NCBI GenBank assembly: GCA_020248985.1
Contig: JADCGL010000003.1
Location: 62,001-126,000, forward strand
Length of the DNA stretch: 64,000 bases
Source of the DNA: Telmatospirillum sp.
Lineage (GTDB): Bacteria; Pseudomonadota; Alphaproteobacteria; CACIAM-22H2
Reading direction: 5' to 3'
Positions 4,851 to 64,000 of this stretch are shown here, one piece after another. The notes under the pieces were generated by a model. The model saw only the letters and a list, made by a program, of their open reading frames with translations. It did no database searches and was not told where the DNA came from. Position 1 is the stretch's first letter. The number at the start of each line of letters is the position of its first letter. A program made the position numbers and the translations under genes.

Positions 4851-6800
4851 ATGGCATGGAGCAAGTTCTTCGGCAAACAGACGGGTGAGCCGGCAAGCGG
4901 GGCTGACGCATTCCTCGCCGCCGCACCGATCGGCTTCTTCGCGCTCGATGCGGCGGGCCGCTTCGTGTTCGCCAACCCGGCCTTTGCCGATTTGCTCGGC
5001 CGTCCGGTCGACGAAATCTGCGCCGGCTTGCGGCTGCACGACGTTCTGGCCGATGCGGTTCCGCCCGAGGCGGCCCCGTTCCAGGCCTTTGCCGACCGCC
5101 AGGCCACCAAGGGCGAAGTGCGTTTGCGCCGCGTGGGCTCGGCGCCGGTGCTGGTCACGATCGAGCAGACGCTCGATCCCGACAGGCGCGACGGCATTGC
5201 GCTGCGCGGCCTTGCCCGCGACGCCGCCCCGTCGCAGGCGATGGCCACCGCCCTTGCGCGCAGCGAGACCGGCTTTCGCCGCTTTTTCGAAAACGCGCCC
5301 GTCGGAATTGCGCTGATCGACCCCGACGGGCGCTTGACCGAAACCAACCGCGCCTTTCAGCGCCTGTGCGGTGCCACGCGCGAAGCGGCGGTGGGCCGCA
5401 ATGTGGCGATGTTCGCAGCCCCCGAGGAGCGCGCCGAACTCGTCGCCAAATTGCACCGCCTCGCCGCGGGTGCCGCCGCCAGCGACGCCGCCGGCGGCGC
5501 GCAAGACCGGCTCAATCTGCGGCTCGTGGCCGAAGACGGCAAAGAGCATGTCGTTGCCGTTTTTGCGCGCGCGCTCGACGAAGCCGCGGGCAGTGCCGGC
5601 GCCGTCATTCTGCATTTTCTCGATATCAGCGAGCAGCGCCGGCTCGAACAGCAGTTCGCGCAGTCGCAGAAAATGCAGGCGGTGGGCCAGCTCGCGGGCG
5701 GCGTCGCCCACGACTTCAACAATCTGCTGACCGCGATGATCGGCTTTTGCGACCTCCTGCTGCTGCGCCACCAGCCCGGCGACGCGTCGTTCGCCGACAT
5801 CATGCAGATTCGCCAGAACGCCAACCGCGCGGCCAATCTCGTGCGCCAACTCTTGGCCTTCTCGCGCCAGCAGACGCTGCAGCCGAAGGTCATCGACGCG
5901 ACCGATGCGCTGACCGAGCTTTCGCATCTGCTGCGCCGCCTCATCGGCGCAGGCATCGAGCTCAAGGTCGTGCATGCGCGCGACCTGTGGCTCGTGCGCG
6001 TGGACCAGGGCCAGCTCGAACAGGTCATCATCAATCTTGCCGTCAACGCGCGCGACGCGATGCAAGGCGGCGGCGTGCTCACGATCCGCACCGGCAATGC
6101 TGTCAAGACCGCGCCCGAGCGCCATGGCGACGAGGAAATCCCGGCCGGCGAATATGTGCGCATCGCAGTCGAAGACACCGGCACCGGCATTTCGCCCGAG
6201 ATTCTCGGCCGCATTTTCGAGCCGTTTTTTTCGACAAAGGCCGTGGGTTCCGGCACGGGCCTGGGCCTGTCGACCGTCTACGGCATTGTGCGCCAAACCG
6301 GCGGCTTCGTGTTGGTCGAAAGCCGGCCCGGCCAAGGTTCCACCTTCACGCTGCTGCTGCCCCGCTGGGTGGGGGCGGCCGAAGCCGAAGGGGTCGTCGA
6401 ACCCGCCGCACGACGGCGCGACCTCACGGGTGCAGGCACCGTGCTGCTCGTCGAAGACGAAGACGCCGTGCGCCTGTTCGGCGCCCGCGCCTTGCGCAAC
6501 AAGGGCTACAAAGTGGTCGAAGCCAAAACCGGCGACGCGGCGCTGGAGATCGTGCGCGAGATGGGATCGAGCATCGACCTCATGATCACCGACGTTGTCA
6601 TGCCGCAGATGGACGGCACGACCTTGATCCGCGAATCGCGCAAATTGTTTCCCAATCTGAAGATCATCTGCATCTCGGGCTATGCCGAAGAGCAATTCCG
6701 GCAGACGCTGGAAGGCTTCGACAACGTGCATTTCCTGCCCAAGCCCTTCAGCCTCGACCAGCTCGCCGCCAAAGCCAAAGAGGCGATGCGCCCAGGCTGA
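4851..6800 (+). CDS. cckA: CckA-type hybrid sensor histidine kinase, no membrane segments
   Basis: Hybrid kinase feeding phosphoryl groups toward ChpT and the CtrA/CpdR cell-cycle and motility network in alphaproteobacteria (family knowledge). The 649 residues read as PAS (about 21-125), PAS (about 134-255), dimerisation helix with H287 in LAGGVAHDFNNLL, an ATPase domain with a GTGLGLSTVYG G-box, and a C-terminal receiver with phosphoacceptor D581 in ITDVVMPQMDG. The stretch from the His box through FCDLLLLRH and NRAANLVRQLLAFSRQQ is characteristic of CckA. Caulobacter CckA starts with two membrane helices; here PAS-A begins about 20 residues from the start and I see no hydrophobic helix. It could be a soluble paralogue. 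Confidence 0.88.
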   Translation: MAWSKFFGKQTGEPASGADAFLAAAPIGFFALDAAGRFVFANPAFADLLGRPVDEICAGLRLHDVLADAVPPEAAPFQAFADRQATKGEVRLRRVGSAPVLVTIEQTLDPDRRDGIALRGLARDAAPSQAMATALARSETGFRRFFENAPVGIALIDPDGRLTETNRAFQRLCGATREAAVGRNVAMFAAPEERAELVAKLHRLAAGAAASDAAGGAQDRLNLRLVAEDGKEHVVAVFARALDEAAGSAGAVILHFLDISEQRRLEQQFAQSQKMQAVGQLAGGVAHDFNNLLTAMIGFCDLLLLRHQPGDASFADIMQIRQNANRAANLVRQLLAFSRQQTLQPKVIDATDALTELSHLLRRLIGAGIELKVVHARDLWLVRVDQGQLEQVIINLAVNARDAMQGGGVLTIRTGNAVKTAPERHGDEEIPAGEYVRIAVEDTGTGISPEILGRIFEPFFSTKAVGSGTGLGLSTVYGIVRQTGGFVLVESRPGQGSTFTLLLPRWVGAAEAEGVVEPAARRRDLTGAGTVLLVEDEDAVRLFGARALRNKGYKVVEAKTGDAALEIVREMGSSIDLMITDVVMPQMDGTTLIRESRKLFPNLKIICISGYAEEQFRQTLEGFDNVHFLPKPFSLDQLAAKAKEAMRPG

Positions 6801-6813
6801 GGCCGCACGGTCG

Positions 6814-7455
6814 CTAGCACGCGTGAAAGCCGCCGCCTGGAATGGGGGCGGGCATCCAGACGCCGAGAATGCGCCCATGCGGGCGGGCGGGTTCGAGCAC
6901 GATCGCAGCCCCTTCCGGAAAAGCACGTCCGCCGACAGCTTCGCCCAAGACCATGATCGCGGGCGTGCGATGGCCCACGAGCACGCGGTTGGCACCCGGT
7001 GGAACGGGTTCGCTGAACAGCCGCGCGTGTCCGGCCAGTACTTCGCCAAAGCGCGCGCCGGCATAATCGTCGGCCAAGAGATCGTCAGTCACGCGCACAT
7101 TCGAGGCACCGAAGGCCAGCTCGGCCGTATCGCGCGCGCGATAGACCGGGCCCGCAAGCACGGGCAACTGCACCGGAATTCGGTGCGTTTCGAACGCTTG
7201 GCCGATCGCGCGCGATTGCGCTTGCCCGGCGGCCGAGATGTTGCGCTGGCCGTCGCGGTCGCCGATGCGAAACGAACGGTCGCACGGCATGCCGAGCGTG
7301 TCGGCATGGCGGAAATACAGCACGAGCCCGCCCGCCTGCAGTCGCGCGATCAATGCTTGCCCCGCCGGCGTTTCGCTTGGTGTGGGTATCAGCGTTTGGG
7401 CTGCCGCGGCACCGGCAAAGAAGAGAGCGATGGCAAGAATCAGGCGCGCAAACAT
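6814..7455 (-). CDS. Secreted histidine-phosphatase-family protein
   Basis: Histidine phosphatase superfamily (phosphoglycerate-mutase fold) enzyme with a signal peptide, so probably periplasmic. Residues 1-19 are a hydrophobic leader ending AAAAQT. The RHG-type motif is LYFRHADTLGM, with Ala in place of the usual Gly, and the second catalytic His is in VLVGHRTPAI. The product is 213 residues. It lies 7 bases downstream of another histidine phosphatase gene on the same strand, so the two are probably co-transcribed. The substrate cannot be told. It ends convergent with cckA. Confidence 0.8.
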   Translation of the reverse strand: MFARLILAIALFFAGAAAAQTLIPTPSETPAGQALIARLQAGGLVLYFRHADTLGMPCDRSFRIGDRDGQRNISAAGQAQSRAIGQAFETHRIPVQLPVLAGPVYRARDTAELAFGASNVRVTDDLLADDYAGARFGEVLAGHARLFSEPVPPGANRVLVGHRTPAIMVLGEAVGGRAFPEGAAIVLEPARPHGRILGVWMPAPIPGGGFHAC

Positions 7456-7462
7456 CCGCTTG

Positions 7463-8038
7463 CTAGCTCGATACGGCGGCCACCCGCCAGGGCCCAGGCA
7501 CCAGCTGCACCGGGACGGCGTTGGCGAGCGTGGCGGCGCGCGGCAGGCCCAGCGTTTCGCGCAACGCCGAAAAACTGCCGCCGTGGGCGACGATCAGCAC
7601 GGGGGCCGGGTTCGTCAGTGCGCGTGCGACAGCACTTGCGATGCGCACGCAAAATTCGGCAAACGGCTCGGCGCCTGAGGGCGTCTCGCCTGCGTACCAC
7701 GCGGCGAGCATGCCGGTGTCGGGCGTTCCTTCTCGCGCACCCCAATTGGTCTCGGCGAGAGCCGGCTCGAACACGACGTCGAGGCCGCGCGCGGCCGCGA
7801 CGATTTCGGCCGTGCGGCGCGCGCGAACCAGCGGGCTTGTGACGATCGTGGTGATTTCGATGTGGCGCAACGCGGCAGCGGCCGATTGGGCTTGCGCAAG
7901 GCCCCTGTCGTTGAGCGGCACGTCGCGGCTGCCTTGCAGCAGGCCTTGGCGGTTCCAGTCGGTCTCGCCGTGGCGCAGAAAGAAAAAAGGAACAAGCGGG
8001 ATATTGCCCGGCTTGTTCCTTTGATCGGTATCGTGCAC
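7463..8038 (-). CDS. Histidine phosphatase family protein (cytoplasmic)
   Basis: Phosphoglycerate-mutase-like phosphatase of 191 residues. It has the canonical LRHGETDWN box near the N-terminus and the second His in IVAHGGSFSAL; there is no signal peptide. The only reasonable start is a GTG at 8038, 11 bases after the infB stop. The first 17 codons then coincide with a strong intrinsic-terminator structure (7983-8019), so expression would need read-through from infB or an internal promoter. Known relatives act on phosphoglycerate, alpha-ribazole phosphate or other small phosphate esters; nothing here picks one. Confidence 0.8.
   Translation of the reverse strand: MHDTDQRNKPGNIPLVPFFFLRHGETDWNRQGLLQGSRDVPLNDRGLAQAQSAAAALRHIEITTIVTSPLVRARRTAEIVAAARGLDVVFEPALAETNWGAREGTPDTGMLAAWYAGETPSGAEPFAEFCVRIASAVARALTNPAPVLIVAHGGSFSALRETLGLPRAATLANAVPVQLVPGPWRVAAVSS
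7983..8019 (-). terminator. Intrinsic terminator after infB, inside the next gene's start
   Basis: On the minus strand a GGAACAAGC / GCTTGTTCC stem, extended by a CGGG/CCC part around a short AT-rich loop, is followed directly by six T residues. It lies about 30 bases after the infB stop. The structure is a textbook Rho-independent terminator and overlaps the N-terminal codons of the histidine phosphatase gene. Confidence 0.8.
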
Positions 8039-8049
8039 CTGAGGAGACC

Positions 8050-10752
8050 CTAGATCGTGCGCGCGACTTCTTCGATTTCGAAGCACTCGATGAGGTCGCC
8101 CTCGCGGATGTCCTCGTAGTTTTCGAAGGCCATGCCGCACTCGTAGCCGTCCTGCACCTCGCGCACTTCGTCCTTGAAGCGGCGCAGCGTCTTGAGCGTG
8201 CCCTCGTGGATGACGGTCTGGTCGCGCAGCAGGCGTACTTTGGCGCCGCGCTTGACCATGCCTTCGACCACGCGGCAGCCCGCGACCTTGCCGACCTTCG
8301 TGATGTTGAAGATCTGGCGGATTTCGGCATTGCCGAGGAACTTCTCGCGCAAGGTCGGCGAGAGCATGCCCGAGAGGGCCGCTTTGATCTCGTCGATGAC
8401 CTGGTAGATGATCGAGTAGTAGCGGATCTCGATGCCGTCGCGCTTGGCCATCTCGCGTGCCTGCGGGTTGGCGCGCACGTTGAAGCCGACCACGAAGCCC
8501 TGGCTTGCCTTGGCGAGTGCGATGTCGCCTTCGGTGATGCCGCCGACCGCCCCGTGCAGCACGCGCACGGCCACTTCGTCGGTGCGCAGCTTCGTGAGCG
8601 ACGCCACGATGGCTTCGAGCGAGCCTTGCACGTCGGTCTTGACGACGACGGCAAGCTCCTTGGCTTCGCCTTCCTGGATCTTGGTGAACATCTGCTCGAG
8701 CGTGCCGCGCGCGCGCATGGCGGACGAAGCGTCGCGCGCCCGGCGCTGGCGGAACTCGGTCACTTCGCGCGCGCGCGCATCGGTTTCCACGACCTGGAAA
8801 TCGTCGCCCGCAAGCGGCGTGCCGTTGAGGCCGATGACTTCGACGGGCGTCGAGGGCCCGGCGGCGTCGATCTGCTTGCCGCGCTCGTCCACGAGGGCGC
8901 GCACGCGGCCCCATTCTTCGCCGGCCACGAAAATGTCGCCGACGCGCAGCGTGCCCTTCTGCACGAGCACGGTCGCGACCGGCCCGCGGCCGCGTTCGAG
9001 CTTGGCTTCGACGATCGCACCTTGCGCCGAACGGTTCGGGTTGGCGCGCAGTTCGAGGATTTCGGCCTGCAGCAGGATGGCTTCTTCGAGCTTGTCGAGA
9101 CCGGTGCGGGCCTTGGCCGACACGTCGATGCCGAGCACGTCGCCGCCGTAGCCTTCGATCGCGATGCCGTGCTGCAGCAGATCGGCGCGCACGCGGTTCG
9201 AATCCGCCCCCGGCTTGTCGACCTTGTTGATCGCGACGATGACCGGCACGTTGGCGGCCTTGGCGTGCGCGATGGCTTCGATCGTCTGCGGCTGGATGCC
9301 GTCGTCGGCGGCCACGACCAGCACCACGATGTCGGTCACTTTGGCGCCGCGCGCGCGCATCGCGGTGAAGGCTTCGTGGCCCGGCGTGTCGAGGAAGGCG
9401 ATCGCCTGTCCGTTCTTGAGCTGCACCTTGTAGGCGCCGATATGCTGCGTGATGCCGCCCGCTTCGTGCTTGGCGACGTCGGTTTCGCGCAACGCATCGA
9501 GCAGCGAGGTCTTGCCGTGGTCGACGTGGCCCATGATCGTGACGACGGGGGCGCGCGGCTCGAGCGCTTCGTCCTGGTCGCCCACGCCCTCGAGGCCGAT
9601 TTCGACGTCGGCTTCGGCCACGCGCTTCACCTTGTGGCCGAATTCGGCGACGATGAGTTCGGCCGTGTCGGCGTCGATCGTCTGGTTGACGGTCGCCATC
9701 ACGCCCATCTTCATCAGGCTCTTGATCACGTCGACGCCGCGCTCGGCCATGCGGTTGGCGAGCTCCTGCACGGTGATCGCCTCCGGCACCACCACGTCGC
9801 GCACGACTTTGGCCGACGGGCCCTGCTGGAACATGCGCGAGCGTTCCTTCTCGCGCGCGCGCTTCATCGCGGCGAGCGAGCGCACGCGGATCGTTTCTTC
9901 CGATTCGAGCGCCTGGGTCACCGACATCTTGTTCTGGCGGCGCTCCTTGAGATCGCGCCCGCCTTCGGGCGCGGCCTTGCCGGGACCCGGACGCATGCCG
10001 ACCCCGCCGCGGCCCGGCGCTTGGCCGGGGCGGAAGGCGCCGGGACGGCGCGGGCGTTCCTCGTCGTCGGCTGTGGCGGCAACGCCGGCACGCGCCAGCA
10101 TCGCGGCCGGAACCGCAACGGGTGCAGCAGGGGCCGCAGGCGCGGCCGGGCTTGCCGCCGCGCGCGCGGCTTCGGCGGCCTGGCGGCGCTTGCCTTCTTC
10201 TTCGTTGAGGCGAAGGGTTTCTTCTTCGGCCTTTTTCTTCTGCGCTTCGTCGATGCGCTGGGCTTCGACCGTGTCGGTCTTTTTCTGAACCGCGTCTTCC
10301 TGCTTGCGCTTGGCCTCTTCGACGGCCTTGCGCTTCATCTCTTCTTCGAAGATTTTCGCTTCTTCTTCCGAGCGGCGCTTGGCTTCGATGTCGGCGCGGA
10401 TCGCGCTCTGGATCGCGCGCTGGCGCGCGGTGCGCTCCTCTTCGGTGAGGGCGCGCAGCACCTGGGGCTTGGCCGCAGGCTTGGCGACCGCAGCGGCCTG
10501 GGCGCTCGACGGCGCTTCGGCGGCCGGAGCGGCGGCGGCACCGGCCGCGGGCGCGGCGCCGGGCGCGCGCTTCTTGCGCACTTCGACCTGCACCGTCTTG
10601 GAACGGCCGTGTGGGAAGCTTTGCCGGACCTGGCCCGCATCGCCGCCGGCACCGGAACCGGCGCGCAGCTCCAGCCGCCCGCCGGTTTTGCCGGCAAGGG
10701 CAAGCTTCTTCTTGGCGTCTTGGGCCGTATCGATGTCTTTGCTGTCCGTCAT
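8050..10752 (-). CDS. infB: Translation initiation factor IF-2
   Basis: GTPase that delivers initiator tRNA to the ribosome. The product is 900 residues. The N-terminal part has low complexity: a charged region rich in Lys/Glu/Arg (roughly 100-200) and Ala/Pro-rich linkers. An IF2-N segment follows, then the G domain with GHVDHGKT at 408-415, DTPGHEAF and NKVDKPGA, then domains II-IV. The ATG at 10752 gives [19 protein letters not shown], which matches alphaproteobacterial IF-2; further upstream codons are not family-like. It is the last conserved member of the rimP-nusA-ylxR-infB operon and is followed by a terminator. Confidence 0.97.
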
Positions 10753-53359: not shown

Positions 53360-54022
53360 CTAACCGGGCGCCGGCGCCCGCGCACCGAAAATGGCGCTGC
53401 CGATACGCACATGCGTTGCACCCAAAGCCACCGCCGTCTCGTAGTCCGCACTCATGCCCATCGACAGGAGCGCTAGGCCGTTGCGCGCCGCGATCTCGGC
53501 CAGCAGTGCAAAATGCGGGGCCGGCGGCTCGTCGGCTGGCGGAATGCACATAAGGCCAGCGATCGCGAGTCGATGCTGATTTTGGCACTCGGCAATGAAA
53601 GCGTCGGCCGCCTCCGGAAGGATTCCGGCCTTTTGCGGCTCGGCTCCGGTATTGACCTGCACGAAAAGCCGGGGCCGTTTGGGCGTGCGTGCGAATTCGG
53701 TCGCCAAGGCAGCCGCAAGTTTGGGGCGGTCGAGCGTTTGAATAACATCAAACGTGGCCACGGCTTCTTTGACTTTATTGGTCTGCAAGGGGCCAATCAG
53801 ATGTAGTTCGAGATTGGCATGATGCGCGCGCAAAGGCGGGTATTTCGCCATAGCCTCCTGCACGCGATTTTCGCCGAACACAATTTGGCCCGCCGCAAGC
53901 GCCTGCTCGACATCGCTGGCCGGATAGGTTTTGGCAACGGCGACAAGGGTGACTTGCTGAGGCCCCGCAGCGGCGATTTTGGCGCGCGTGGCCAAAAGGC
54001 GATCAGCAATCGAATCCATCAT
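53360..54022 (-). CDS. YggS-family PLP-homeostasis protein
   Basis: Small PLP-binding TIM-barrel protein (YggS/PLPBP), 220 residues. The PLP lysine is in TLVAVAKTYPASDVEQA, followed by FGENRVQEAMAKYP, HLIGPLQTNKVKEAV, and the C-terminal MGMSADYETAVALGATHVRIGSAIFG. It buffers cellular PLP and affects amino-acid metabolism. A 16-bp palindrome at its 3' end separates it from the convergent unknown gene. Confidence 0.93.
   Translation of the reverse strand: MMDSIADRLLATRAKIAAAGPQQVTLVAVAKTYPASDVEQALAAGQIVFGENRVQEAMAKYPPLRAHHANLELHLIGPLQTNKVKEAVATFDVIQTLDRPKLAAALATEFARTPKRPRLFVQVNTGAEPQKAGILPEAADAFIAECQNQHRLAIAGLMCIPPADEPPAPHFALLAEIAARNGLALLSMGMSADYETAVALGATHVRIGSAIFGARAPAPG
53365..53380. repeat. 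16-bp perfect palindrome at convergent gene ends
   Basis: CGGGCGCCGGCGCCCG spans the last codons of the YggS gene, 18 bases past the stop of the unknown plus-strand gene. It could form a hairpin on both transcripts but has no T-tract. Confidence 0.4.
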
Positions 54023-54043
54023 CGTTTATAGGCCTGAAAAAGA

Positions 54044-54073
54044 AAAAGGGGGATGGCGAACCATCCCCCTTTC
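54044..54073 (-). terminator. Intrinsic terminator after the large porin gene
   Basis: Minus strand: 12-bp stem AAAGGGGGATGG / CCATCCCCCTTT with a TTCG loop, followed by TTCTTTTTC. About 32 bases after the porin stop. A strong Rho-independent terminator. Confidence 0.8.
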
Positions 54074-54104
54074 CGTATCTCCCAAGCGGGGAGAGACGAT
54101 TTGC

Positions 54105-55439
54105 TTAGAACGCCAGGACGAGGGCCGAAACGGCGCCGTTGGCCTTCTGCGTCGTCTTGATGTTGTTCGGCACCGAAGAGAAGCTGGCGTAGTAACCGCC
54201 AACCTGCTTCAACGTGAACACCGACAGCTGGACCGACACGCCCGGAGCGAGCGTGTAAGCGCCGTTCAGAGCAAGAGCCGTACGCTTGTCGTCGCCGAGC
54301 GTGGAGGCATTCTTCACGCCCGTTTCACGGTTGACGCGATCGGGTGTGGCTTTGCCGTTGAAGTAGTTCAACGACACCGAAGCCGGCCCGAAGATGTAGC
54401 CGACGCCCGCTTCATACGCGCGGCTGTCGCTGATCACCATCTGGTTGGTGACGGTGTTGCCGAGCGCCGACGCCGTGGCGCCCATGCCGACGATGTTGAC
54501 CGTGTCGCCAGCCGTGTGGCTGCCGCGCATGATGTTGGCAACGTCCTTATAGTCGGTGTAGGAGCCGCCGATCTGGATGCCCTGCCACACGGCGTTGGCG
54601 CCGAGGCCCCAAGCCTTCGCGTCGGGGATCTTGAACGCTGCCGTGCCCGTGCCCGTCGCGCGAGCGCCGGGGTTCGTCGCGTTCCAGTGGTAGTAGGTGC
54701 CGTAGGCGCTGACCGCCACGTCGCCGATCGGACGCGTGAAGTTCAGAGCCACTGCCTTGCCGTTGTCGTACGACTGACCCGTCGTGGCGACCTGCGACGC
54801 ATGGCGACCTGCCGAGATTTCCGGGGTCCAGCTGGCGATCAGCTGGAAGCCTTCGATGCGCGGCGAGATGTAGATGAGCTTTTCCGACTGACGGTCGTAG
54901 AGACGGATCGAGGTCGAGCCGTAGCCCGTATCGTCCGCCGACACCGTGGCCGGGCCGCCGCCGCCGACGAAGTCGTAGATCTTGCCGAGACGCGCCGAAC
55001 CAGCCGTGAAGGCGTCGAACGAGCCGACGAAACCCTGCTGCGAGGCGTTGTCGTCGCGACCGACGCGGACCTGGCCGAATGCGCCGCCGATACCGGCATA
55101 AGCGCGACGGAACAGCGAGTCCTGGTTGAAGCGGCTGTTCGTGGTGTCGTACGAGAAGCCGGTCTGGTCTTCCAGCTGGAACACGCCAAGGGCCTGCATG
55201 CCATTCGCCGTGGCAAAGCGCGCCGTCACGTCAAAACGGACCGCCGTCTGCACGTCGGCAGAGGAGGTGTGGCCCGAGAGACGATCATACGAGACTGCGC
55301 CGACGAAGCCGCGGCTCAAGCCGCCGATCGTTACTTCCGTATTGTTCGTTTTGAATGCCTGGGCATTTGCCGGGGCAATGGCACCGAACGAGGCAGCGAC
55401 TGCCAGCGCCGTGGTGCCAAAAAGCCAGTTCTTGTTCAT
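54105..55439 (-). CDS. General porin, outer membrane
   Basis: A 444-residue beta-barrel porin of the Gram-negative type. Signal peptide with cleavage after ANAQA (near 27). Family features: long alternating strands, RFDVTARFATANGMQALGVFQLEDQ, a RVGRDDNASQQGFVGSFDAF loop and the C-terminal Phe (ALVLAF) for BAM recognition. Codons are more uniform than in neighbours, as expected for a highly expressed protein. It is monocistronic, with a strong terminator after it; its promoter lies in the 337-base gap to the DUF3576 gene. Confidence 0.88.
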   Translation of the reverse strand: MNKNWLFGTTALAVAASFGAIAPANAQAFKTNNTEVTIGGLSRGFVGAVSYDRLSGHTSSADVQTAVRFDVTARFATANGMQALGVFQLEDQTGFSYDTTNSRFNQDSLFRRAYAGIGGAFGQVRVGRDDNASQQGFVGSFDAFTAGSARLGKIYDFVGGGGPATVSADDTGYGSTSIRLYDRQSEKLIYISPRIEGFQLIASWTPEISAGRHASQVATTGQSYDNGKAVALNFTRPIGDVAVSAYGTYYHWNATNPGARATGTGTAAFKIPDAKAWGLGANAVWQGIQIGGSYTDYKDVANIMRGSHTAGDTVNIVGMGATASALGNTVTNQMVISDSRAYEAGVGYIFGPASVSLNYFNGKATPDRVNRETGVKNASTLGDDKRTALALNGAYTLAPGVSVQLSVFTLKQVGGYYASFSSVPNNIKTTQKANGAVSALVLAF

Positions 55440-55776
55440 TCACTCTCTCCATGATGAGCTCTGCGCGAGCATTATCGCTGCACTGGATTGGTCCCAACGC
55501 AAACGCTCAGTAGCCATCTCATTTTGCCGGAGGGTGGTCAATTGTTTGGCGACCGGCTCGAAAGCTTTGAAAGCAGCCTGTTGCCGATACGCCACAGCGG
55601 TAACGCCGAATTAGGAATAATTACGGATTTGTGGGTTGATCCTTGGTTTTTCAAAGCAACAGCATCGAATCTGGGCGTTGAAAACGCCGCAGCAGGGGGC
55701 CAATTCTTTGCGAAGACGCCCGCAACCAGCTATTGTCGCGTCAGGTGCATGAGTCACGAATCAGGCAGGTCAAATT
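55440..55776. other. Divergent intergenic region, porin / DUF3576 gene
   Basis: A 337-base gap, more AT-rich than its neighbours. On the plus strand a promoter for the DUF3576 gene is likely at 55708-55736. On the minus strand a TTGACC (about 55536-55541) could be a -35 box for the porin, but no good -10 is seen. An open plus frame at 55488-55787 has no protein-like features. The region has room for a regulatory RNA, but I see no definite structure. Confidence 0.4.
55708..55736 (+). promoter_or_regulatory. Predicted promoter for the DUF3576 gene
   Basis: -35 TTGCGA (55708-55713), 17-base spacer, -10 TATTGT (55731-55736), about 40 bases before the ATG. Confidence 0.45.
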
Positions 55777-56337
55777 ATGTTTGTTAAATATGTCGAGGCC
55801 TTCTCCCGGGCGGCTGCAACGGTTGCGATCGTTGTTGCGTTGACGGCATGCTCGGGCGCCCGCATCGAAGAGGATATTCCGCGCGAAGTGCCAGGCAGCA
55901 ACAGCGTATACACCTCTTCCACGGCGCCCAGCGGCGCCGGAATCGGCAGTTTGTTCGGCGATGGGGGCCTTGGTATCGGCGGCAATCGAGGAACAAGCAG
56001 CGGAACGGGGATCGGGGTCAACGCGTTGCTGTGGCAGGCGACACTCGACACGATCGCCTTCATGCCGTTGGTTCAGGCCGATCCGTTTGGCGGAGTCATC
56101 CTAACCGACTGGTACAGCGCCGAGACGGCTCCGTCCGAGCGCCTCAAGCTCAACATCTTCATTCTCGGCCAGGATTTGCGCGCAGATGCAGTTCGCGTTT
56201 CCATGTTCCGCCAACGCCGCACTGGAGCCGATAGCTGGGAGGACGTCGCGGTGCAGCCGCAAGGTCCGATCGGCATCGAGAATGCGATTTTGACGCGCGC
56301 ACGCACGCTGCGTCGCGAACGGGCCAGCGCGCGCTGA
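55777..56337 (+). CDS. DUF3576 lipoprotein
   Basis: A 186-residue lipoprotein with the hydrophobic leader VAIVVALTAC (lipobox LTAC, Cys near 25). A Gly/Ser linker (about 45-80) leads to the DUF3576 core: GVNALLWQATLDTIAFMPL, DPFGGVILTDWYS, ERLKLNIFILGQDLRADAVRVSMFRQ. In alphaproteobacteria this gene commonly sits just before leuS; here two GT41 genes lie between. Function unknown, probably envelope. It ends three bases from the convergent GT41 gene. Confidence 0.82.
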   Translation: MFVKYVEAFSRAAATVAIVVALTACSGARIEEDIPREVPGSNSVYTSSTAPSGAGIGSLFGDGGLGIGGNRGTSSGTGIGVNALLWQATLDTIAFMPLVQADPFGGVILTDWYSAETAPSERLKLNIFILGQDLRADAVRVSMFRQRRTGADSWEDVAVQPQGPIGIENAILTRARTLRRERASAR

Positions 56338-56340
56338 GTT

Positions 56341-59300
56341 TCAACCGCGCGATAAAAGGCCTAACCTCTCGGAATTGTAGATTTTTTCGATCGCGGCTTC
56401 GAAGTTTCGCGTCCAGCCGGCACCGTCCATGACAGGGCTTGACGCAAAGCGCGCGCGCAGCGTGCGCCGATATTCGGCGAGCCGCGCGCGGTCTTTGCCG
56501 AGTGCGGTCGCGATCTGCACATAGTCGTCGATGGTTTCGCCGACGAGTTCGCCCAAGCCGGCATGGCGCAAAAGGCTCGCCCCTACACGCGCCGAATGGC
56601 GGTCGCCAACGCACGTCACGACGGGAACGCCCATCCACAAGGCTTCGCACGTCGTCGTGGTGCCGTTGTAGGGGAATGTATCGAGGGCAACGTCGATGCG
56701 CGCATAGGCCGCCAAATGCGCGGCGGTTGCCGCCCGTTCGTCGATCAGGATCAAGCGATCCGACGGCAAACCTGCATCAAGAAACATTCTGCGCAAACGC
56801 GGGCCCGATTTTGACTCGCGCGCCAGCGGCGGCTTGAGCAGGAGCTTGGCGTTGGGAATCGCACCGACAATGCGGGCCCATGCTTCGGCGACGGGCGGTC
56901 GGATTTTCTGCGTGCCGTTGAACGATCCAAAGGTGGGCGACCCGACGATCGCGATCGGCGGCGGTGCCACATCGGGCGCATCGTCCGGTGCCGAATAGCA
57001 GACGAATGGCCCTGCAAGGCGCTCGAGTTTCTCGGAAAAATGCGCGGCGGCGTCCGACGGCGGATCCGCCGTCGCATCGCCGATGCGATAGCCGATCTCG
57101 GGTATACCGGTCGAGCCAGGAAAGCCGAGCCATTCGACGATCGCAGGGGCGGGCTTGTAGGCCGCAGCGGCAATCAGGGAACCGCTCGTATAGCCGCCCA
57201 ATTCCACAAGCACATCGATATTCGCGTCGGCGACAGCCTGCGCAATCTGCGCGGGCGCCAAGCGCGTGGTTTCAAGCCAAGACGTCGCCGATGCCGCAAA
57301 CCAGTCGGAAATCTCGTCGCGCGGCGCAATGCCGAAATCGGCGAAACAGTGCAGTTCGTAGTGCCCGCGGTCGCAATTTTCGAACAGCGGCTTGAGGAAA
57401 TAGGCGCAGGAGTGGCGCCGAAAGTCGGGCGACAAAAAGCCGATACGCAATTTCGCGCCACGCTTCCGCGCGGCGAACAAAGGGGCCGACGGCCGTTGCA
57501 GCCGCGCCGATATCGCAGCACCGATCGACCGCAGGGCGGCGCCATCTTTTGCCGCATCGGCGATGCTGAGAAAATAGCGCCGCTGCAGCGCCAGGGTCGC
57601 TTCGTTGGATTTGTCCGTTGAATCGACCGTTTCAAACGATTTGATTGCCGCCTCGAAATCGCCGACTTCGAACTGCAGCAGCGCCATATTGTAACGCGCC
57701 TGCAGATGGTTCGGAGCGAGCTCGAGCGCCTTCGTCAGAGCCGCAAGTGCGGCCGGATGGTCGCCCGATTCTTTGTGGAAATGGCCGAGATTGGACCAGC
57801 GCTCGGGCAGTTCGGGCTCGAGAGCAAGAGCACGTTCCAGAAGCGTGCGCGCCGTCGTCCGATCGCCCATGGCGAGCATTACGGACGCAAGAGCGGTAGC
57901 GGCCATGGCCGAATCGGGTCGCAATTCGATCGCCTTTTCGAGCGCTTCGCGCGCGGCGTCGAACGACGCTGGATCGCGCAACAGCATGCCGAGATTGAAC
58001 CAGGCATCGTAGTTGGCCGGATCGAGCGTAGTCGCGTCTCGGAAATAGCCGATTGCCGCGTCGCGGCGATCGGTTGCGGCAGCAAAATGACCGAGACGAT
58101 TGAGAATCGCGACATCCGACGGGGCTGCTGCACGCGCCGCAGCAAGAGCCGAAAATCCTTGCTCGATATCGCCGCGCTTGAACGCGTCGTCGGCGCGGGC
58201 AAGCAGATCGGACACGGTTTCAGCCGTCGGCGCGGGTGACACGGGCTGGCCCGTTGCGTCGGCATAAATACGTTCAAGGGCTGCTTCAAAACCGCGCGTC
58301 CAGCGATACCCATCCATAACGGGACTCGCGGCGAGTTTCCGGCGGATCGTGCCGCGATATGCGGCGAGCCGCGCGCGATCCTGGCCCAACGCGACGGCAA
58401 GCGCCACGTACGATTCGACATCGGTTGCCACAAGCTCGGGCAAGCCGGCATGGGCAAGCAATGTGGCACCGACGCGCGCGGAATGGCGGTCGCCTGCATA
58501 CGCGACAACGGGCACGCCCATCCACAAAGCTTCGCAGGTCGTTGTCGTACCGTTGTAGGGGAACGTATCGAGGGCGACGTCGAGACGCGCATAAGCAGCC
58601 AAGTGCGCTTCCGTGCTCTGCGTGCCGTCGATCAGCACGAGCCGGTCTTCCGGCAGGCCTGCGGCCGCAAACATGCTGCTGAGCCGCTCGCGCGTCTTGG
58701 GTTCGGTCGAGAGCGGGGCTTTAATCAGCAGCTTCGCGTTCGGCACCGCCATTACAATGCGCGTCCACACGCGCGCGGTGTGCGCGCGGATTTTGTGGGC
58801 GCTGTTGAACGTGCCGAAAGTCGGCCCGTCGGACGCAAGGATCGGCGGCGGCGCGACGTCGGGCGCTTCAGGCGGCGGCGAGAAGCAAAGGAACGGCCCA
58901 TCGAGCCGCTCGAGCTTCTCGCAGAAATGCGCCTCGATTTTGCCCGCAGGATCGGCGACCGTGTCGCCGATGCGGTAGGCGATCTCCGGAAGACCCGTCG
59001 AGGCCGGAAACCCGAGCCATTCGACGATCGCTGGGGCCGGCCGATAGGCGCAGACCGCGATCATCGAACCGCCCGTATAACCGCCGAGCTCGAGCAACAC
59101 GTCGATTCGGTCGTCGGCGACTTTGCGCGCGATCTCGGGCGGGCTCAGCGCCGTCGTGTCGGTCCAGTGGTCCGCCGACGCGCGGAACCAATCGGTCACC
59201 TGGTCGGGCTCGGCTTGCGTGAAATCGGCATAGCAGTGGAACTCGAAGCGCGACCTGTCGCGATTCTCGAACAGCGGCTGCAGGAAATAGGCGCAGGAAT

Positions 59301-60129
59301 GGCGCCTGAAATCGGTCGACAACAGGCCGATCCGCAGTCGAGGCCCGCGCGGCGTCGGCGTGTAGAAGGGCGCGTCCGTGCGGTCCATCTTGTCCGAGAT
59401 TTCGCGGCCGAGCGCCAGAAGCTGCTCGCCGGTCGCGTCGATCTCGGAGATATGCGGGAAATAGCGGCGCTCGAGAGAAGTGAAGACGTCTTCGTCGACA
59501 TTGTCGCGGACGATGGCGTCGAACTCGGCCGACGCTTTTTCGAAGTCGCCGACCTTGTAGTCGAGGGTGGCGATATTGTAGCGCACCTGCAGCGAATTCG
59601 GGCTCAACTTCAGCGCGCGCTCGAGGGCCGCGCGTGCTTCGTCGTAGGCGCGCAACTCGCGCAGCAGATTGCCGAGATTGGACCAGCGCTCGGCCACATC
59701 GGGCTCGAGCTCGGCGGCGCGCTGAAGATGCGCAAGCGCCGCCTCGCGCGCCTTGAGCGAGATTTCGGCAAGGCCCAATGCCGTCAGGGCCGCGGCCGAT
59801 TGGGGCCGGCAGCGCACGGCCTGGGCGAGTGCCTCGCGCGCCTCGCCGTTATGGCCGTTCTGCCGCAGCAGCAGACCCAGATTGTACCAGGCTTCGTAGC
59901 TGTCGGCGTCGATGCCGACGACTCGGCGGAAATAGCCGATCGCGTCGTCGATGCGGCCCGCGGAAGCCGAAAACACGCCGAGATTGTTGAGAATCTTGGC
60001 GTTGCCGGGATCGGCCGCTTGGGCGTCGCGCAGGATGCGGAAACATCCTTCAAGGTCGCCGCCCTGGAACGCGGCAGCGGCGGCTTTGAGATAGGGCGGC
60101 ATTTCGCCCGGCTTGGAAGAGTCTGTCAT
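56341..60129 (-). CDS. Tandem TPR-GT41 (SPINDLY/OGT-like) double enzyme
   Basis: A 1262-residue chain holding two full copies of a TPR plus O-GlcNAc-transferase-type unit. Copy 1: TPRs about 8-240, GT41 domain about 262-620 (RIGLLSTDFRRHSCAYF; RPAPAIVEWLGFPASTG; DTFPYNGTTTTCEALWMG near 520). Copy 2: TPRs about 636-870, GT41 about 892-1250 (RIGFLSPDFRRHSCAYF; same later motifs, DTFPYNG near 1148). Catalytic-region His and the Lys of LLIKAPL/LLKPPL are kept in both, so both may be active. Likely cytoplasmic protein glycosylation, or glycosylation of a surface-protein precursor. It follows another GT41 gene by 12 bases. Confidence 0.88.
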   Translation of the reverse strand: MTDSSKPGEMPPYLKAAAAAFQGGDLEGCFRILRDAQAADPGNAKILNNLGVFSASAGRIDDAIGYFRRVVGIDADSYEAWYNLGLLLRQNGHNGEAREALAQAVRCRPQSAAALTALGLAEISLKAREAALAHLQRAAELEPDVAERWSNLGNLLRELRAYDEARAALERALKLSPNSLQVRYNIATLDYKVGDFEKASAEFDAIVRDNVDEDVFTSLERRYFPHISEIDATGEQLLALGREISDKMDRTDAPFYTPTPRGPRLRIGLLSTDFRRHSCAYFLQPLFENRDRSRFEFHCYADFTQAEPDQVTDWFRASADHWTDTTALSPPEIARKVADDRIDVLLELGGYTGGSMIAVCAYRPAPAIVEWLGFPASTGLPEIAYRIGDTVADPAGKIEAHFCEKLERLDGPFLCFSPPPEAPDVAPPPILASDGPTFGTFNSAHKIRAHTARVWTRIVMAVPNAKLLIKAPLSTEPKTRERLSSMFAAAGLPEDRLVLIDGTQSTEAHLAAYARLDVALDTFPYNGTTTTCEALWMGVPVVAYAGDRHSARVGATLLAHAGLPELVATDVESYVALAVALGQDRARLAAYRGTIRRKLAASPVMDGYRWTRGFEAALERIYADATGQPVSPAPTAETVSDLLARADDAFKRGDIEQGFSALAAARAAAPSDVAILNRLGHFAAATDRRDAAIGYFRDATTLDPANYDAWFNLGMLLRDPASFDAAREALEKAIELRPDSAMAATALASVMLAMGDRTTARTLLERALALEPELPERWSNLGHFHKESGDHPAALAALTKALELAPNHLQARYNMALLQFEVGDFEAAIKSFETVDSTDKSNEATLALQRRYFLSIADAAKDGAALRSIGAAISARLQRPSAPLFAARKRGAKLRIGFLSPDFRRHSCAYFLKPLFENCDRGHYELHCFADFGIAPRDEISDWFAASATSWLETTRLAPAQIAQAVADANIDVLVELGGYTSGSLIAAAAYKPAPAIVEWLGFPGSTGIPEIGYRIGDATADPPSDAAAHFSEKLERLAGPFVCYSAPDDAPDVAPPPIAIVGSPTFGSFNGTQKIRPPVAEAWARIVGAIPNAKLLLKPPLARESKSGPRLRRMFLDAGLPSDRLILIDERAATAAHLAAYARIDVALDTFPYNGTTTTCEALWMGVPVVTCVGDRHSARVGASLLRHAGLGELVGETIDDYVQIATALGKDRARLAEYRRTLRARFASSPVMDGAGWTRNFEAAIEKIYNSERLGLLSRG

Positions 60130-60141
60130 CGTGTTGCGAAC

Positions 60142-61539
60142 TCAACTCGCGGCGGGGGTTTTTGTCGGACGTTCGGCGAAAATGCGGGACAAACCCGCCT
60201 CGAAAGTACGGGTCCATCGCGCCGCGTCGCAGACGAGGCTCGCCGACAATTTCGTGCGCATCGTGCTGCGATAGGCTTCGAGGCGCGAACGATCGGTGGC
60301 CAAGGCAACGGCTTTTTCGACGTAGTCGTCGGGCGTTTCGGCAATCAATTCGCCGAGGCCCGCATGGTGCAGCAGACTGGCACCCACGCAAGCCGAATGG
60401 CGCCGGCCGCGCAGGGCGACGACCGGCACGCCCATCCACAGCGCCTCGCATGTGGTCGTGGTGCCGTTGTAGGGGAACGTGTCGAGTGCGACATGCAGCT
60501 TCGCATAGGTCGCAAGATGGCCGCGCAGATCGCGTTCGAAACCGAGCAGCGTCAGCTTTTCGGGCGGCAGGCCGGCGGCGGCGAACATGCCGCGCAAGTA
60601 CGCGGCATTCGTCGGTTCTTCGTCGAGGCGGCATTTGATGAGCAAGCGTGCGCCAGGTACGCGCGCGACGATTCGCGCCCACAGCTGGGCCGTCTGCATG
60701 TTGAACTTGTGCAGCGCGTTGAACGTACCGAAACAGATTTCGCCGTCGGGCACGGGGGCCGGAGCCGGCGCACTTTCTTCGGGCGCGTAGCACAGGAACG
60801 GACCGTCGAGACGCACGATCTTTTCGCTGAAATGCGCATCGGCAGGTCCCGGCGGGTCGCTGACCGCGTCGCCGAAGCGATAGCCGATGCCCGGAATGCC
60901 CGTCGAGGCCGGGAAACCCAGCCACGACACGATTTTGCGTGCGGGCCGGTAGGTGCAGACCGGCGCCGTCGAGCCGAAGGAATACCCGCCCACATCGACC
61001 AACACGTCGATGGCCGCTTCGCAAATATGCTGGGCAAGCGTCGGCATGATGAAATGCGTGGTCTCGGTCCAGCGATCGGCCGAGTGCTTGAACCAGTCCG
61101 ACTGCGCGTCGCGCTTTGTTTCGCTGTAGTCGGCATAGCAGTGGAACTCGAACTGCTTGCGGTCGCGATTCTCGAACAGCGGGCGCAGAAAGAACGCGCA
61201 GGAATGGCGGCGAAAATCGGGCGACAAAAAGCCGATGCGCAGCCGGCCGGGGCGGCGCGGGCCAGGCCGCAGAACCGGCTTCAAAGGTCGCGGAAACTGT
61301 CCGGAATGGTGCTTAGCATAAGCAAGCAGGGTCGCGCCGTCGGTCTCAGGATCGCAAATTTTCGCCGTGAATTCCGAGTCGCGGGCCGCCCGCGCATAGC
61401 CGAACAGCGCATAGGCGCGCGCATCGGCCGGATGCGCCTGAAGATGCGCGTCGAACGCCGACACGGCATCGGCAAAACGCCGTTGCGCAAGCGCCTCGAT
61501 GCCGCTTTGCAGACGGTCGCCGGATTGTGGGTCGGACAT
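60142..61539 (-). CDS. GT41 (SPINDLY/OGT-like) glycosyltransferase, single catalytic domain
   Basis: A 465-residue protein from ATG 61539 (MSDPQSGDRLQSGIEAL); longer starts at 61590 and 61638 are possible. A short helical repeat part (about 1-70, one or two TPRs) precedes the catalytic region: RIGFLSPDFRRHSCAFFLRPLF at about 99, DVGGYSFGSTAPVCTYRPARK, WLGFPASTG, and DTFPYNGTTTTCEALWMG near 351. It is the first gene of a two-gene unit with the double enzyme. Acceptor unknown; bacterial relatives modify flagellin, adhesins or other surface proteins. Confidence 0.86.
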   Translation of the reverse strand: MSDPQSGDRLQSGIEALAQRRFADAVSAFDAHLQAHPADARAYALFGYARAARDSEFTAKICDPETDGATLLAYAKHHSGQFPRPLKPVLRPGPRRPGRLRIGFLSPDFRRHSCAFFLRPLFENRDRKQFEFHCYADYSETKRDAQSDWFKHSADRWTETTHFIMPTLAQHICEAAIDVLVDVGGYSFGSTAPVCTYRPARKIVSWLGFPASTGIPGIGYRFGDAVSDPPGPADAHFSEKIVRLDGPFLCYAPEESAPAPAPVPDGEICFGTFNALHKFNMQTAQLWARIVARVPGARLLIKCRLDEEPTNAAYLRGMFAAAGLPPEKLTLLGFERDLRGHLATYAKLHVALDTFPYNGTTTTCEALWMGVPVVALRGRRHSACVGASLLHHAGLGELIAETPDDYVEKAVALATDRSRLEAYRSTMRTKLSASLVCDAARWTRTFEAGLSRIFAERPTKTPAAS

Positions 61540-61695
61540 TTCCAAATGGCTCGGCAGTTCGGTCGTTTGGCCCTCGGTGTCGGGTACCATGCGCACCCGC
61601 ACCTGACAAGCGAACGCAGCCACTTCGGCTATTCCCATCTTTGAGCAGTTCGCCTATTCATGGGGCCCCTTCGACCGACAGACGGCAAAACACGC

Positions 61696-64000
61696 ATGGC
61701 CCGCTACAATTTCCGCGAATCCGAAACGCAGTGGCAGCAACGCTGGGAACAGGCGCGCGCCTTCGAACCGAGCGACGATTTCACGAAGCCCAAATACTAC
61801 GTGCTCGAGATGTTTCCGTATCCGTCGGGCCGCATCCATATGGGCCACGTGCGCAACTACACGCTGGGCGACGTAGTGGCACGCCATCGCAAAGCTCTCG
61901 GCTACAACGTGCTGCATCCGATGGGCTGGGACGCTTTCGGCCTGCCGGCCGAAAACGCCGCGCGCGACATGCAGATCCATCCCGGCAAATGGACCTACGA
62001 CAACATCGCTACGATGCGCGGCGAATTGAAACGCGTGGGCCTCGCCATCGACTGGACGCGCGAAATCGCGACCTGCCATCCCGGCTACTACGCGCACGAA
62101 CAGGCGCTGTTCCTGGATTTCTTCGACAAGGGCCTCGTCTATCGCAAGGAAGCCTTCGTCAATTGGGACCCGATCGACCAGACCGTGCTCGCCAACGAGC
62201 AGGTGATCGACGGCAAGGGCTGGCGCTCGGGTGCGGCCGTCGAAAAGAAGAAGCTGTCGCAGTGGTTCTTCAAGATCACGCACTATGCCGAAGAGCTTCT
62301 GTCGGCCCTGGGCACGCTCGACCGCTGGCCCGAAAAAGTGCGGCTGATGCAGGAGAACTGGATCGGCAAATCGTCGGGCGCTTACGTGCGTTTCGCGCTC
62401 GAAGGTCGATCCGACAGTGTCGAGGTTTTCACCACGCGGCCCGACACGCTGTTCGGGGCTTCATTCCTCGCTTTGTCGCCCGACCACAAGCTCACGGCCG
62501 AACTTGCGGCCGCAAACCCGGCACTCGCCGCCTTCGTGGCCGAGTGCCAGCGCGCCGGCACGTCGGCCGCCGTCGTCGAACAGCTCGAGAAAAAGGGCTT
62601 CGACACCGGACTTCGCGTCGCCCACCCGTTCGTTGCCGGCAAGACGCTGCCCGTCTGGGTCGCCAATTTTGTGCTGATCGACTACGGCACGGGGGCGATT
62701 TTCGGCTGCCCCGCGCACGACCAGCGCGACTGGGATTTCGCGACCAAATACGGCCTGCCGATCGCGGCCGTCGTCGCCCCCGAAGGCGAAAAAATCGACA
62801 TCTCGAAGGAGGCCTATACAGGCCCCGGCCGCCTCGTGAATTCCGATTTCCTCGACGGGCTCGAAGTCGAGGACGCCAAAGCACGGGTCGGCGAAAAGCT
62901 CAAAGCGCTGGGGACCGGCGAGCCGACGGTCGTGTGGCGCCTGCGCGATTGGCTCGTCAGCCGCCAGCGCTATTGGGGCTGTCCGATCCCGGTCGTGCAT
63001 TGCGGCACGTGCGGCGTGGTGCCGGTGCCGAAGAGCGAGCTGCCGGTCAAACTGCCCGACGATGTGCGCTTCGACAAACCGGGCAATCCGCTCGACCACC
63101 ACCCGACCTGGAAGCATGTCGGCTGCCCCAAATGCGGCAAGCCGGCACGTCGCGAAACCGACACGTTCGATACGTTCGTCGATTCGTCGTGGTACTTCGC
63201 GCGTTTCTGCAGCCCGCGCGACGCAAACCCCGTGGACCGCAAGGCGGTCGATTACTGGCTGCCGGTCGATCAGTATGTCGGCGGCGTCGAGCATGCGATT
63301 TTGCATCTGCTCTATTCGCGCTTCTTCACGCGCGCGATGCGCGCCACGGGCCACGCCAATCTCGACGAGCCGTTTGCCGGCCTGTTCACGCAAGGCATGG
63401 TCTGCCACGAGAGCTACAAGAGTGCCGCCGGCAAATGGCTCTATCCCGAAGAGATCGAGCGCAAATCGGAAAATCTCGTTGTCGAGATCGCGACCGGCCA
63501 GCCGGTGACAGTCGGCCGCCGCGAGGTCATGTCGAAATCCAAAAAGAACGTCGTCGCCCCGGGCCGCATCATCGACGAATACGGTGCGGATACGGCAAGG
63601 CTGTTCATGCTGTCGGACAGCCCGCCCGAGCGCGATCTCGAATGGACCGAAGCGGGCGTGGACGGCGCGTTCCGCTTCCTGCAGCGCCTATGGCGCGACG
63701 TGACCGAGCCCGATGTTCCGTTTGCGGCCAAAGACGCACCCAAGCCCGACACGCTTGCCCCGGCCGCCGATGCCGCGTTGCGCGCCGTGCACAAGACGAT
63801 CGCGTCGGTCTCCGACAATCTCGAGAATTTCCGCTTCAATGTCGCGGTTGCGCAGATTCGCACGCTCGCGAACACGCTGGGCGATCTCGACGTGAAAGCG
63901 GCGGGAGCCGATTGGGTGCGACGGCGCGGCTACGAGATCCTCGTGCAGCTCGTAGGCCCGATGGTACCGCATATCGGCGAATCGCTATGGGCCGCCCTCG
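61696..64000 (+). CDS. leuS: Leucyl-tRNA synthetase, 3'-truncated by window end
   Basis: Class I aminoacyl-tRNA synthetase charging tRNA-Leu. The ATG at 61696 gives [18 protein letters not shown], as in other alphaproteobacteria, and the frame stays open to base 64000 (768 codons). HIGH site: [15 protein letters not shown] (H48-H51); the editing domain lies at about 225-420 with [10 protein letters not shown]; a C2-type zinc-like insert has CGTCG and CPKCGK; KMSKS is VMSKSKKN at 611-618. About 90 C-terminal residues are missing. It is divergent from the GT41 gene, with 156 bases between. Confidence 0.97.

What the first reader, a model, noticed from the sequence alone, without database searches (positions are those of the whole stretch)
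56341..60129. One protein with two complete TPR-GT41 units head to tail
The protein repeats an entire OGT-like architecture (TPR, catalytic, TPR, catalytic) in 1262 residues. Both catalytic halves keep DFRRHSCAYF, WLGFP(A/G)STG and DTFPYNGTTTTCEALWMG, so it looks like a tethered two-active-site enzyme rather than a decayed duplicate. OGT family members I know have one catalytic region. Two sites could glycosylate neighbouring positions of one client or act in sequence with different donors.
Basis: partly seen in the sequence, partly recalled or inferred. Interest (0 to 1): 0.72.

Follow-up and report, generated by a model that had tools for sequence, protein, structure and literature searches.

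The report
Double-headed bacterial TPR sugar transferase
One bacterial gene encodes two complete, apparently intact sugar-attaching enzymes of the SPINDLY/OGT kind joined head to tail; such chains turn out to recur in many bacteria, in one sulfate reducer with eleven copies in one open reading frame, and I found no paper that describes them.

Summary
The minus-strand ORF 56341-60129 encodes 1262 residues: TPR-GT41-TPR-GT41. The halves are 57% identical over 603 aa, and both keep every catalytic and donor-contact residue checked against Arabidopsis SPINDLY (SPY), including the essential Lys665 equivalent. Predicted structures of both halves match SPY best (Z about 46-50). A third GT41 gene (498 aa) lies 12 nt upstream in the same frame. 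A same-genus genome has one TPR-GT41 gene at the same DUF3576-leuS locus, probably the orthologue of unit B. So this looks like a fused pair from a tandem gene array. Purifying selection acts on both units, and TPR-B evolves fastest.

The two-donor idea is weakened: the sites are identical at all compared positions and carry the Tyr of GDP-fucose-type SPY, not the Cys of UDP-GlcNAc OGT. The architecture is not unique. Multi-unit GT41 ORFs occur in about 20 other genomes from several phyla. The extreme is Desulfonema magnum (complete genome), with 8395 codons and 11 units; its unit order is conserved one-to-one in two related genomes. I found no paper describing such proteins.

Most likely this is a tethered pair of SPY-type protein O-glycosyltransferases using one donor class. 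Client, donor and activity are untested. It is a new variant of a known kind.

The parts
56341..60129 (-). 1262-aa tandem TPR-GT41-TPR-GT41 protein
   Evidence: single open frame; PF13844 and TPR families in both halves; halves 57% identical
59503..60096 (-). TPR array of unit A (about residues 12-209)
   Evidence: helix pairs in AF2 model of unit A; Pfam TPR
58258..59343 (-). GT41 catalytic domain A (residues 263-624)
   Evidence: structural match to SPY Z 48.4, 603 aligned, rmsd 3.2 A for the whole unit
58216..58251 (-). short linker A-B (residues 627-638)
   Evidence: low pLDDT (model residues 583-587); no internal ATG near it, only GTG-like codons 630 and 639
57562..58215 (-). TPR array of unit B (about residues 639-856), the fast-evolving part
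   Evidence: branch length 0.76 versus 0.26 (A) and 0.13 (G009) in the TPR tree
56368..57456 (-). GT41 catalytic domain B (residues 892-1254)
   Evidence: unit B matches SPY 8dti Z 46.3 and TtOGT 5djs Z 46.2
60142..61638 (-). third GT41 gene, 498 aa, little TPR; same frame as the tandem gene, separated by TGA and 12 nt
   Evidence: its catalytic domain is 60% identical to cat A
55777..56337 (+). DUF3576 lipoprotein-like gene, left border of the GT41 insert
   Evidence: PF12100; synteny with G009
61660..63999 (+). leuS (runs off the window), right border of the GT41 insert
   Evidence: 96% identical to G009

Best explanation
The gene encodes a tethered pair of SPINDLY-type cytosolic protein O-glycosyltransferases (GT41). 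Each unit has its own TPR superhelix for client binding and its own intact active site. It arose by in-frame fusion of two neighbouring genes of a TPR-GT41 tandem array (the unfused neighbour survives 12 nt upstream). Both sites most likely use the same class of sugar nucleotide (SPY-like pocket). They act on the same or related clients, with unit B's diverged TPR altering client reach. Shown: architecture, intact residues, fold, array context, purifying selection, recurrence elsewhere. Inferred: catalytic activity of both sites, common donor, client, benefit of tethering.
For: Both halves keep D491, H495, S496, E567, G570, T572, G593, N661, K665, H728, Y744, T747-749, C751 and E752 of SPY (functional roles of most from PMC9715652). 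AF2: unit A pLDDT 88.9, pTM 0.81; tandem residues 50-1249 pLDDT 86.9. Best PDB matches are SPY for both units. dN/dS 0.21-0.25 in the catalytic domains (dN 0.215-0.285, dS 1.04-1.21). Upstream GT41 gene in the same frame. At the same locus a congeneric genome has one TPR-GT41 plus a convergent GT41, and seven of the ten other genus genomes have a GT41 gene at or beside the YggS-porin-DUF3576-leuS block. Independent tandem GT41s: same family (G016) and many other bacteria, some with unit-to-unit orthology between species (L062/L066, L067/L086).
Against: No biochemical evidence; the donor cannot be read from sequence alone. TtOGT, also with Tyr at this position, showed no O-GlcNAc activity in vitro (PMC9715652). 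No client gene is adjacent with any evidence of being one. Only one genome carries this tandem, so its retention over time is not shown. pTM 0.53 of the tandem model leaves the relative placement of the two sites undetermined.
Confidence: 0.6

Rival explanations
1. Covalent pseudo-dimer: the fusion mainly makes permanent the head-to-tail dimer that SPY forms (TPR1 of one protomer on the C-lobe of the other), so A and B are a single functional 2-site unit rather than two independent heads.
For: SPY is a head-to-tail dimer and its activity falls in WT/K665A heterodimers, i.e. it works 2:2 (PMC9715652). Here C-lobe A is joined directly to the first TPR of B by a short linker.
Against: AF2 gives no confident inter-unit arrangement (pTM 0.53). 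Chains of 3, 6, 9 and 11 units elsewhere are not explained by dimerisation alone.
Confidence: 0.3
2. Two-step or two-donor enzyme: A attaches the first sugar and B extends it or uses another donor.
For: Two intact sites and divergent TPRs. In some other tandems one unit is of SPY type and one of OGT/Xc type (e.g. D. magnum unit 11, L070, L078 and L080 second units).
Against: In this protein the two sites are identical at all 16 compared positions, including the donor-selecting Tyr.
Confidence: 0.12
3. One unit is catalytically silent and serves only as an additional client-binding or regulatory arm.
For: TPR-B has a branch about three times as long as TPR-A. Such silencing seems to occur in another tandem: L063 unit 2 has lost several catalytic residues.
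Against: No catalytic position is lost in A or B and dN/dS is similar for both catalytic domains.
Confidence: 0.15
4. Sequencing or assembly error: two adjacent genes whose stop codon was lost in the assembly.
For: Draft genome in 44 contigs; the neighbouring 498-aa gene is separated from unit A only by a stop in the same frame; several junction codons are one substitution from a stop.
Against: No exact repeat over 23 nt that would drive misassembly; no ATG near the start of unit B and only GTG codons 630 and 639 without an evident ribosome-binding site; equivalent fusions in complete or independent genomes.
Confidence: 0.07

Closest known systems
Arabidopsis SPINDLY (SPY), GT41 protein O-fucosyltransferase (PDB 7y4i, 8dti)
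   Same: TPR superhelix plus GT41 GT-B fold; all mutated catalytic and GDP-contact residues kept in both halves; best structural match of both units
   Different: SPY has one catalytic domain and 11 TPRs; here there are two shorter TPR-catalytic units in one chain; donor untested
Bacterial single-unit TPR-GT41 proteins (XcOGT 2jlb; T. terrenum OGT 5djs)
   Same: size and fold of each unit
   Different: tandem; biochemical activity of these bacterial proteins is itself poorly defined
Caulobacter FlmG, flagellin O-glycosyltransferase (TPR plus GT-B)
   Same: TPR client arm plus C-terminal GT-B transferase acting in the cytosol (PMC7591256)
   Different: FlmG is single; in this genome a different, single GT41 (C2:59151-60812) lies with flagellar genes and a flagellin, so it is the better FlmG candidate
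Multi-unit GT41 frames found here (Desulfonema magnum 8395 codons, 11 units; Desulfatirhabdium at least 9; Pelobacter 6; Nitrospirae and Burkholderiales 2)
   Same: head-to-tail TPR-GT41 repetition with intact active sites in nearly all units
   Different: unit relationships show separate origins; the window protein's units are nearest to each other and to neighbouring or congeneric genes

Membership tests
GT41 (CAZy), PF13844 | PF13844 match over the curated cut-off, twice | tested here: met
   310.8 bits, cut-off 25, four lobe matches; each lobe over cut-off
GT41 (CAZy), PF13844 | conserved phosphate-contacting Lys (SPY K665 / hOGT K842) in each unit | tested here: met
   Lys in A, B and the 498-aa neighbour
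GT41 (CAZy), PF13844 | GT-B fold preceded by TPR superhelix | tested here: met
SPINDLY-type protein O-fucosyltransferase | Tyr at the SPY Y744 position and TTT(x)CE donor loop | tested here: met
   both halves; role of Y744 from PMC9715652
SPINDLY-type protein O-fucosyltransferase | transfer of fucose from GDP-fucose to Ser/Thr | not testable with these tools
   needs enzyme assay
O-GlcNAc transferase proper (human OGT type) | Cys at the C917 position (SPY Y744) leaving room for GlcNAc | tested here: not met
   Tyr in both units (equivalence from PMC9715652)
FlmG-type flagellin transferase | flagellin as client | not tested
   six flagellin matches in the genome, none near this gene; a separate GT41 sits in a flagellar locus

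The most novel reading that the evidence does not exclude
Tandem GT41 proteins, from two units here to eleven in Desulfobacterota, form a class of assembly-line-like protein glycosyltransferases. In them each TPR-catalytic unit has its own fixed role along one polypeptide and modifies successive sites of a large or repetitive client.
Probability: 0.3. Interest if true: 0.78.

Novelty: new variant of a known kind. Interest (0 to 1): 0.55.

Why it matters
Described OGT/SPY enzymes have one active site. A natural two-site fusion isolates what tethering does (processivity, dimer locking, widened client range) and is small enough to assay. The ordered, conserved 11-unit chain in Desulfobacterota makes the question sharper: units that could have been homogenised have kept separate identities in order across genera, which is hard to explain unless each has its own job.

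Tried and rejected
(1) Assembly duplicate: rejected as the main explanation (57% aa identity, 23-nt longest exact match). (2) Mosaic/recombinant origin of the G009 single gene (TPR from A, catalytic domain from B), suggested by raw identities (TPR 60 vs 49%, cat 62-65 vs 70-71%): not needed. Trees leave (B,G009) best in both parts, with a long TPR-B branch. (A,B) sisterhood is excluded for the TPR (AU 0.022) but not for the catalytic domain (AU 0.155). (3) Local duplication in this species only: disfavoured by the same trees, since cat B groups with G009 (99.6/100) to the exclusion of A. (4) Different donors for the two sites: no residue difference found at the donor pocket positions tested. 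(5) Flagellin as client: not adjacent; another GT41 occupies the flagellar locus. (6) Tandem GT41 on plasmids: no two-unit gene stood out; the places covering most of the query span only about 1.8-1.9 kb, single-gene size. (7) L115 (SAR116 single-cell genome) has two identical units, which may be an amplification or assembly artefact, so I do not count it as support. (8) Literature searches for multi-GT41 proteins found none. The library is open-access only, and the Desulfonema genome paper (PMC8315694) is not held. (9) The survey (1 tandem among 26 GT41-bearing alphaproteobacterial genomes of 96) used E<=1e-22 and is a lower bound.

Full report
Observation. The frame 56341..60129 on the minus strand is a single 1262-residue ORF. 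Pfam assigns GT41 (PF13844, 310.8 bits against a cut-off of 25, four lobe matches) and TPR models to both halves. Residues 20-622 of the first half align with the second half at 57.4% identity without large gaps. The gene sits in the middle of a 214-kb contig, and the longest exact word shared by the halves is 23 nt, so it is not a collapsed or duplicated assembly repeat.

Active sites. I aligned both halves with the Arabidopsis SPY catalytic domain as printed by the PDB search and read off the positions with known roles. Those roles come from PMC9715652: K665 essential; H495 substitutions dead; S496, Y744 and T748 strongly reduced; N661 and H728 contact GDP; E567, G570 and T572 lie in loops around the active site. 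All sixteen positions are identical to SPY in unit A and in unit B. The position that the SPY authors link to donor choice (Y744; Cys917 in human OGT, which uses UDP-GlcNAc) is Tyr in both. So neither site looks dead, and nothing in the pocket suggests that the two sites use different donors. Which donor they use cannot be read from this.

Fold. AlphaFold2 of unit A gave pLDDT 88.9 and pTM 0.81; its best structural match is SPY 7y4i (Z 48.4, 603 aligned, rmsd 3.2 A). The model of residues 50-1249 gave pLDDT 86.9 with a low-confidence hinge between the units, and pTM 0.53. Unit B matches SPY 8dti (Z 46.3, 607 aligned, rmsd 4.7 A) and T. terrenum OGT (Z 46.2, 504 aligned, rmsd 2.7 A). The relative position of the two active sites is therefore not determined.

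Context and origin. The gene upstream (60142..61638, 498 aa) is another GT41 with only a remnant of TPR. It is in the same frame as the tandem gene, separated by TGA and 12 nt. The locus is thus a run of three GT41 domains, of which the last two are fused. In the congeneric genome G009 the same YggS-porin-DUF3576--leuS locus (leuS 96% identical) holds one TPR-GT41 of the same orientation plus a convergent GT41. Across the genus the block is a turnover site: GT41 genes lie between YggS and the porin (G001, G005, G007), between DUF3576 and leuS (G000, G009, G010, and probably G008, where the contig ends), beyond leuS (G004), or were not seen in the stretch examined (G002, G003, G006). Catalytic-domain trees place G009 with unit B (99.6/100), then A, then the 498-aa gene. 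The TPR tree excludes A and B as sisters (AU 0.022) and shows a long TPR-B branch (0.76 against 0.26 and 0.13). I read this as an older A/B duplication, loss of A in G009, and faster change in TPR-B. The (A,B) alternative is not excluded for the catalytic part (AU 0.155). Catalytic-domain dN/dS is 0.21-0.25 between A, B and G009; TPR ratios are 0.30-0.43; dS is near or above 1, so these are rough.

How common it is. A scan of species-level genomes with the protein returned about 20 other loci whose single frames hold two or more GT41 domains. They come from Desulfobacterota, Nitrospirota, Thiotrichaceae, Burkholderiales and other Betaproteobacteria, Planctomycetota and others. The hits were picked with a tandem query, so this is not a frequency. 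In a sample of 96 alphaproteobacterial genomes, 26 had a strong GT41 and only the window's own showed two units in a frame at the threshold used. Another family member (G016) has a separate two-unit frame of 1368 codons that fills its contig; its units are 51% identical to each other and only 41-45% to the window's. Pairs of Nitrospirae (L062/L066) and betaproteobacteria (L067/L086) show unit 1 nearest to unit 1 and unit 2 nearest to unit 2. Tandems are therefore kept through speciation in those lineages.

The extreme case. The complete chromosome of Desulfonema magnum (NZ_CP061800.1, 6110238-6135422, minus) has one open frame of 8395 codons with 11 TPR-GT41 units. In Desulfatirhabdium a frame of at least 6568 codons has 9 units, which match the Desulfonema units in the same order. 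In a third genome (Desulfobacterales GMC2) all 11 units occur in the same order, spread over five frames, and each of the 11 best matches its same-numbered Desulfonema unit (70-83% identity). Units 1-10 within Desulfonema are 62-73% identical to one another. Catalytic residues are kept in nearly all units, and the last unit is of a different, OGT-like subtype. I found no description of these proteins in the open-access papers searched. I did not check how the public record annotates this frame.

Mechanism. Most likely the window protein is a tethered pair of SPY-type protein O-glycosyltransferases with one donor class and two TPR arms, formed by stop loss between neighbouring array genes. Tethering would raise local site density on a client or fix the dimer. 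SPY itself is a head-to-tail dimer that needs both sites (PMC9715652), so a covalent pseudo-dimer is the strongest rival and partly compatible. Architecture, intact residues and fold are shown; activity, donor, client and benefit are inferred. FlmG shows that a bacterial TPR-GT-B enzyme can bind its client through the TPR part (PMC7591256). In this genome a different single GT41 gene lies among flagellar genes, so flagellin is not the favoured client here.

Verdict. The finding is real and correctly described. The interpretation of two live sites is favoured; the two-donor idea is weakened; uniqueness is wrong. It is a new variant of a known kind, with the ordered 11-unit relatives as the more surprising extension.

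Noticed in passing
L152/L153 (Desulfonema magnum NZ_CP061800.1, 6110238-6135422, minus strand): One 8395-codon open frame with 11 TPR-GT41 units; unit order conserved one-to-one in Desulfobacterales GMC2 (11 units over five frames), and 9 units collinear in Desulfatirhabdium. The last unit is OGT-like, the others SPY-like.
   Followed up: partly
L155 (Pelobacter sp. GS8, G013:C20:51335-62584): 3750-codon frame with 6 GT41 units, several with altered donor-loop residues (GLT instead of TTT), next to a single-unit GT41 gene.
   Followed up: partly
L070, L078, L080 (second units): Tandem GT41 proteins in which one unit is SPY-like and the other has the OGT/Xc-like His...Asp donor loop: candidates for true two-donor enzymes.
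   Followed up: no
L115 (SAR116 single-cell genome), 5473-10176: Two GT41 units whose catalytic sequences are identical; may be a very recent duplication or an amplification/assembly artefact.
   Followed up: no
window 53360-61660: YggS-porin-DUF3576-leuS block is a turnover hot spot for GT41 genes across the genus; the adjacent porin is a conceivable client.
   Followed up: partly
whole genome G000: 33 GT41 lobe matches (about 17 proteins) and six flagellins; one GT41 (L178:3151-4812) lies beside hook-like and flagellin genes and is a FlmG candidate.
   Followed up: partly
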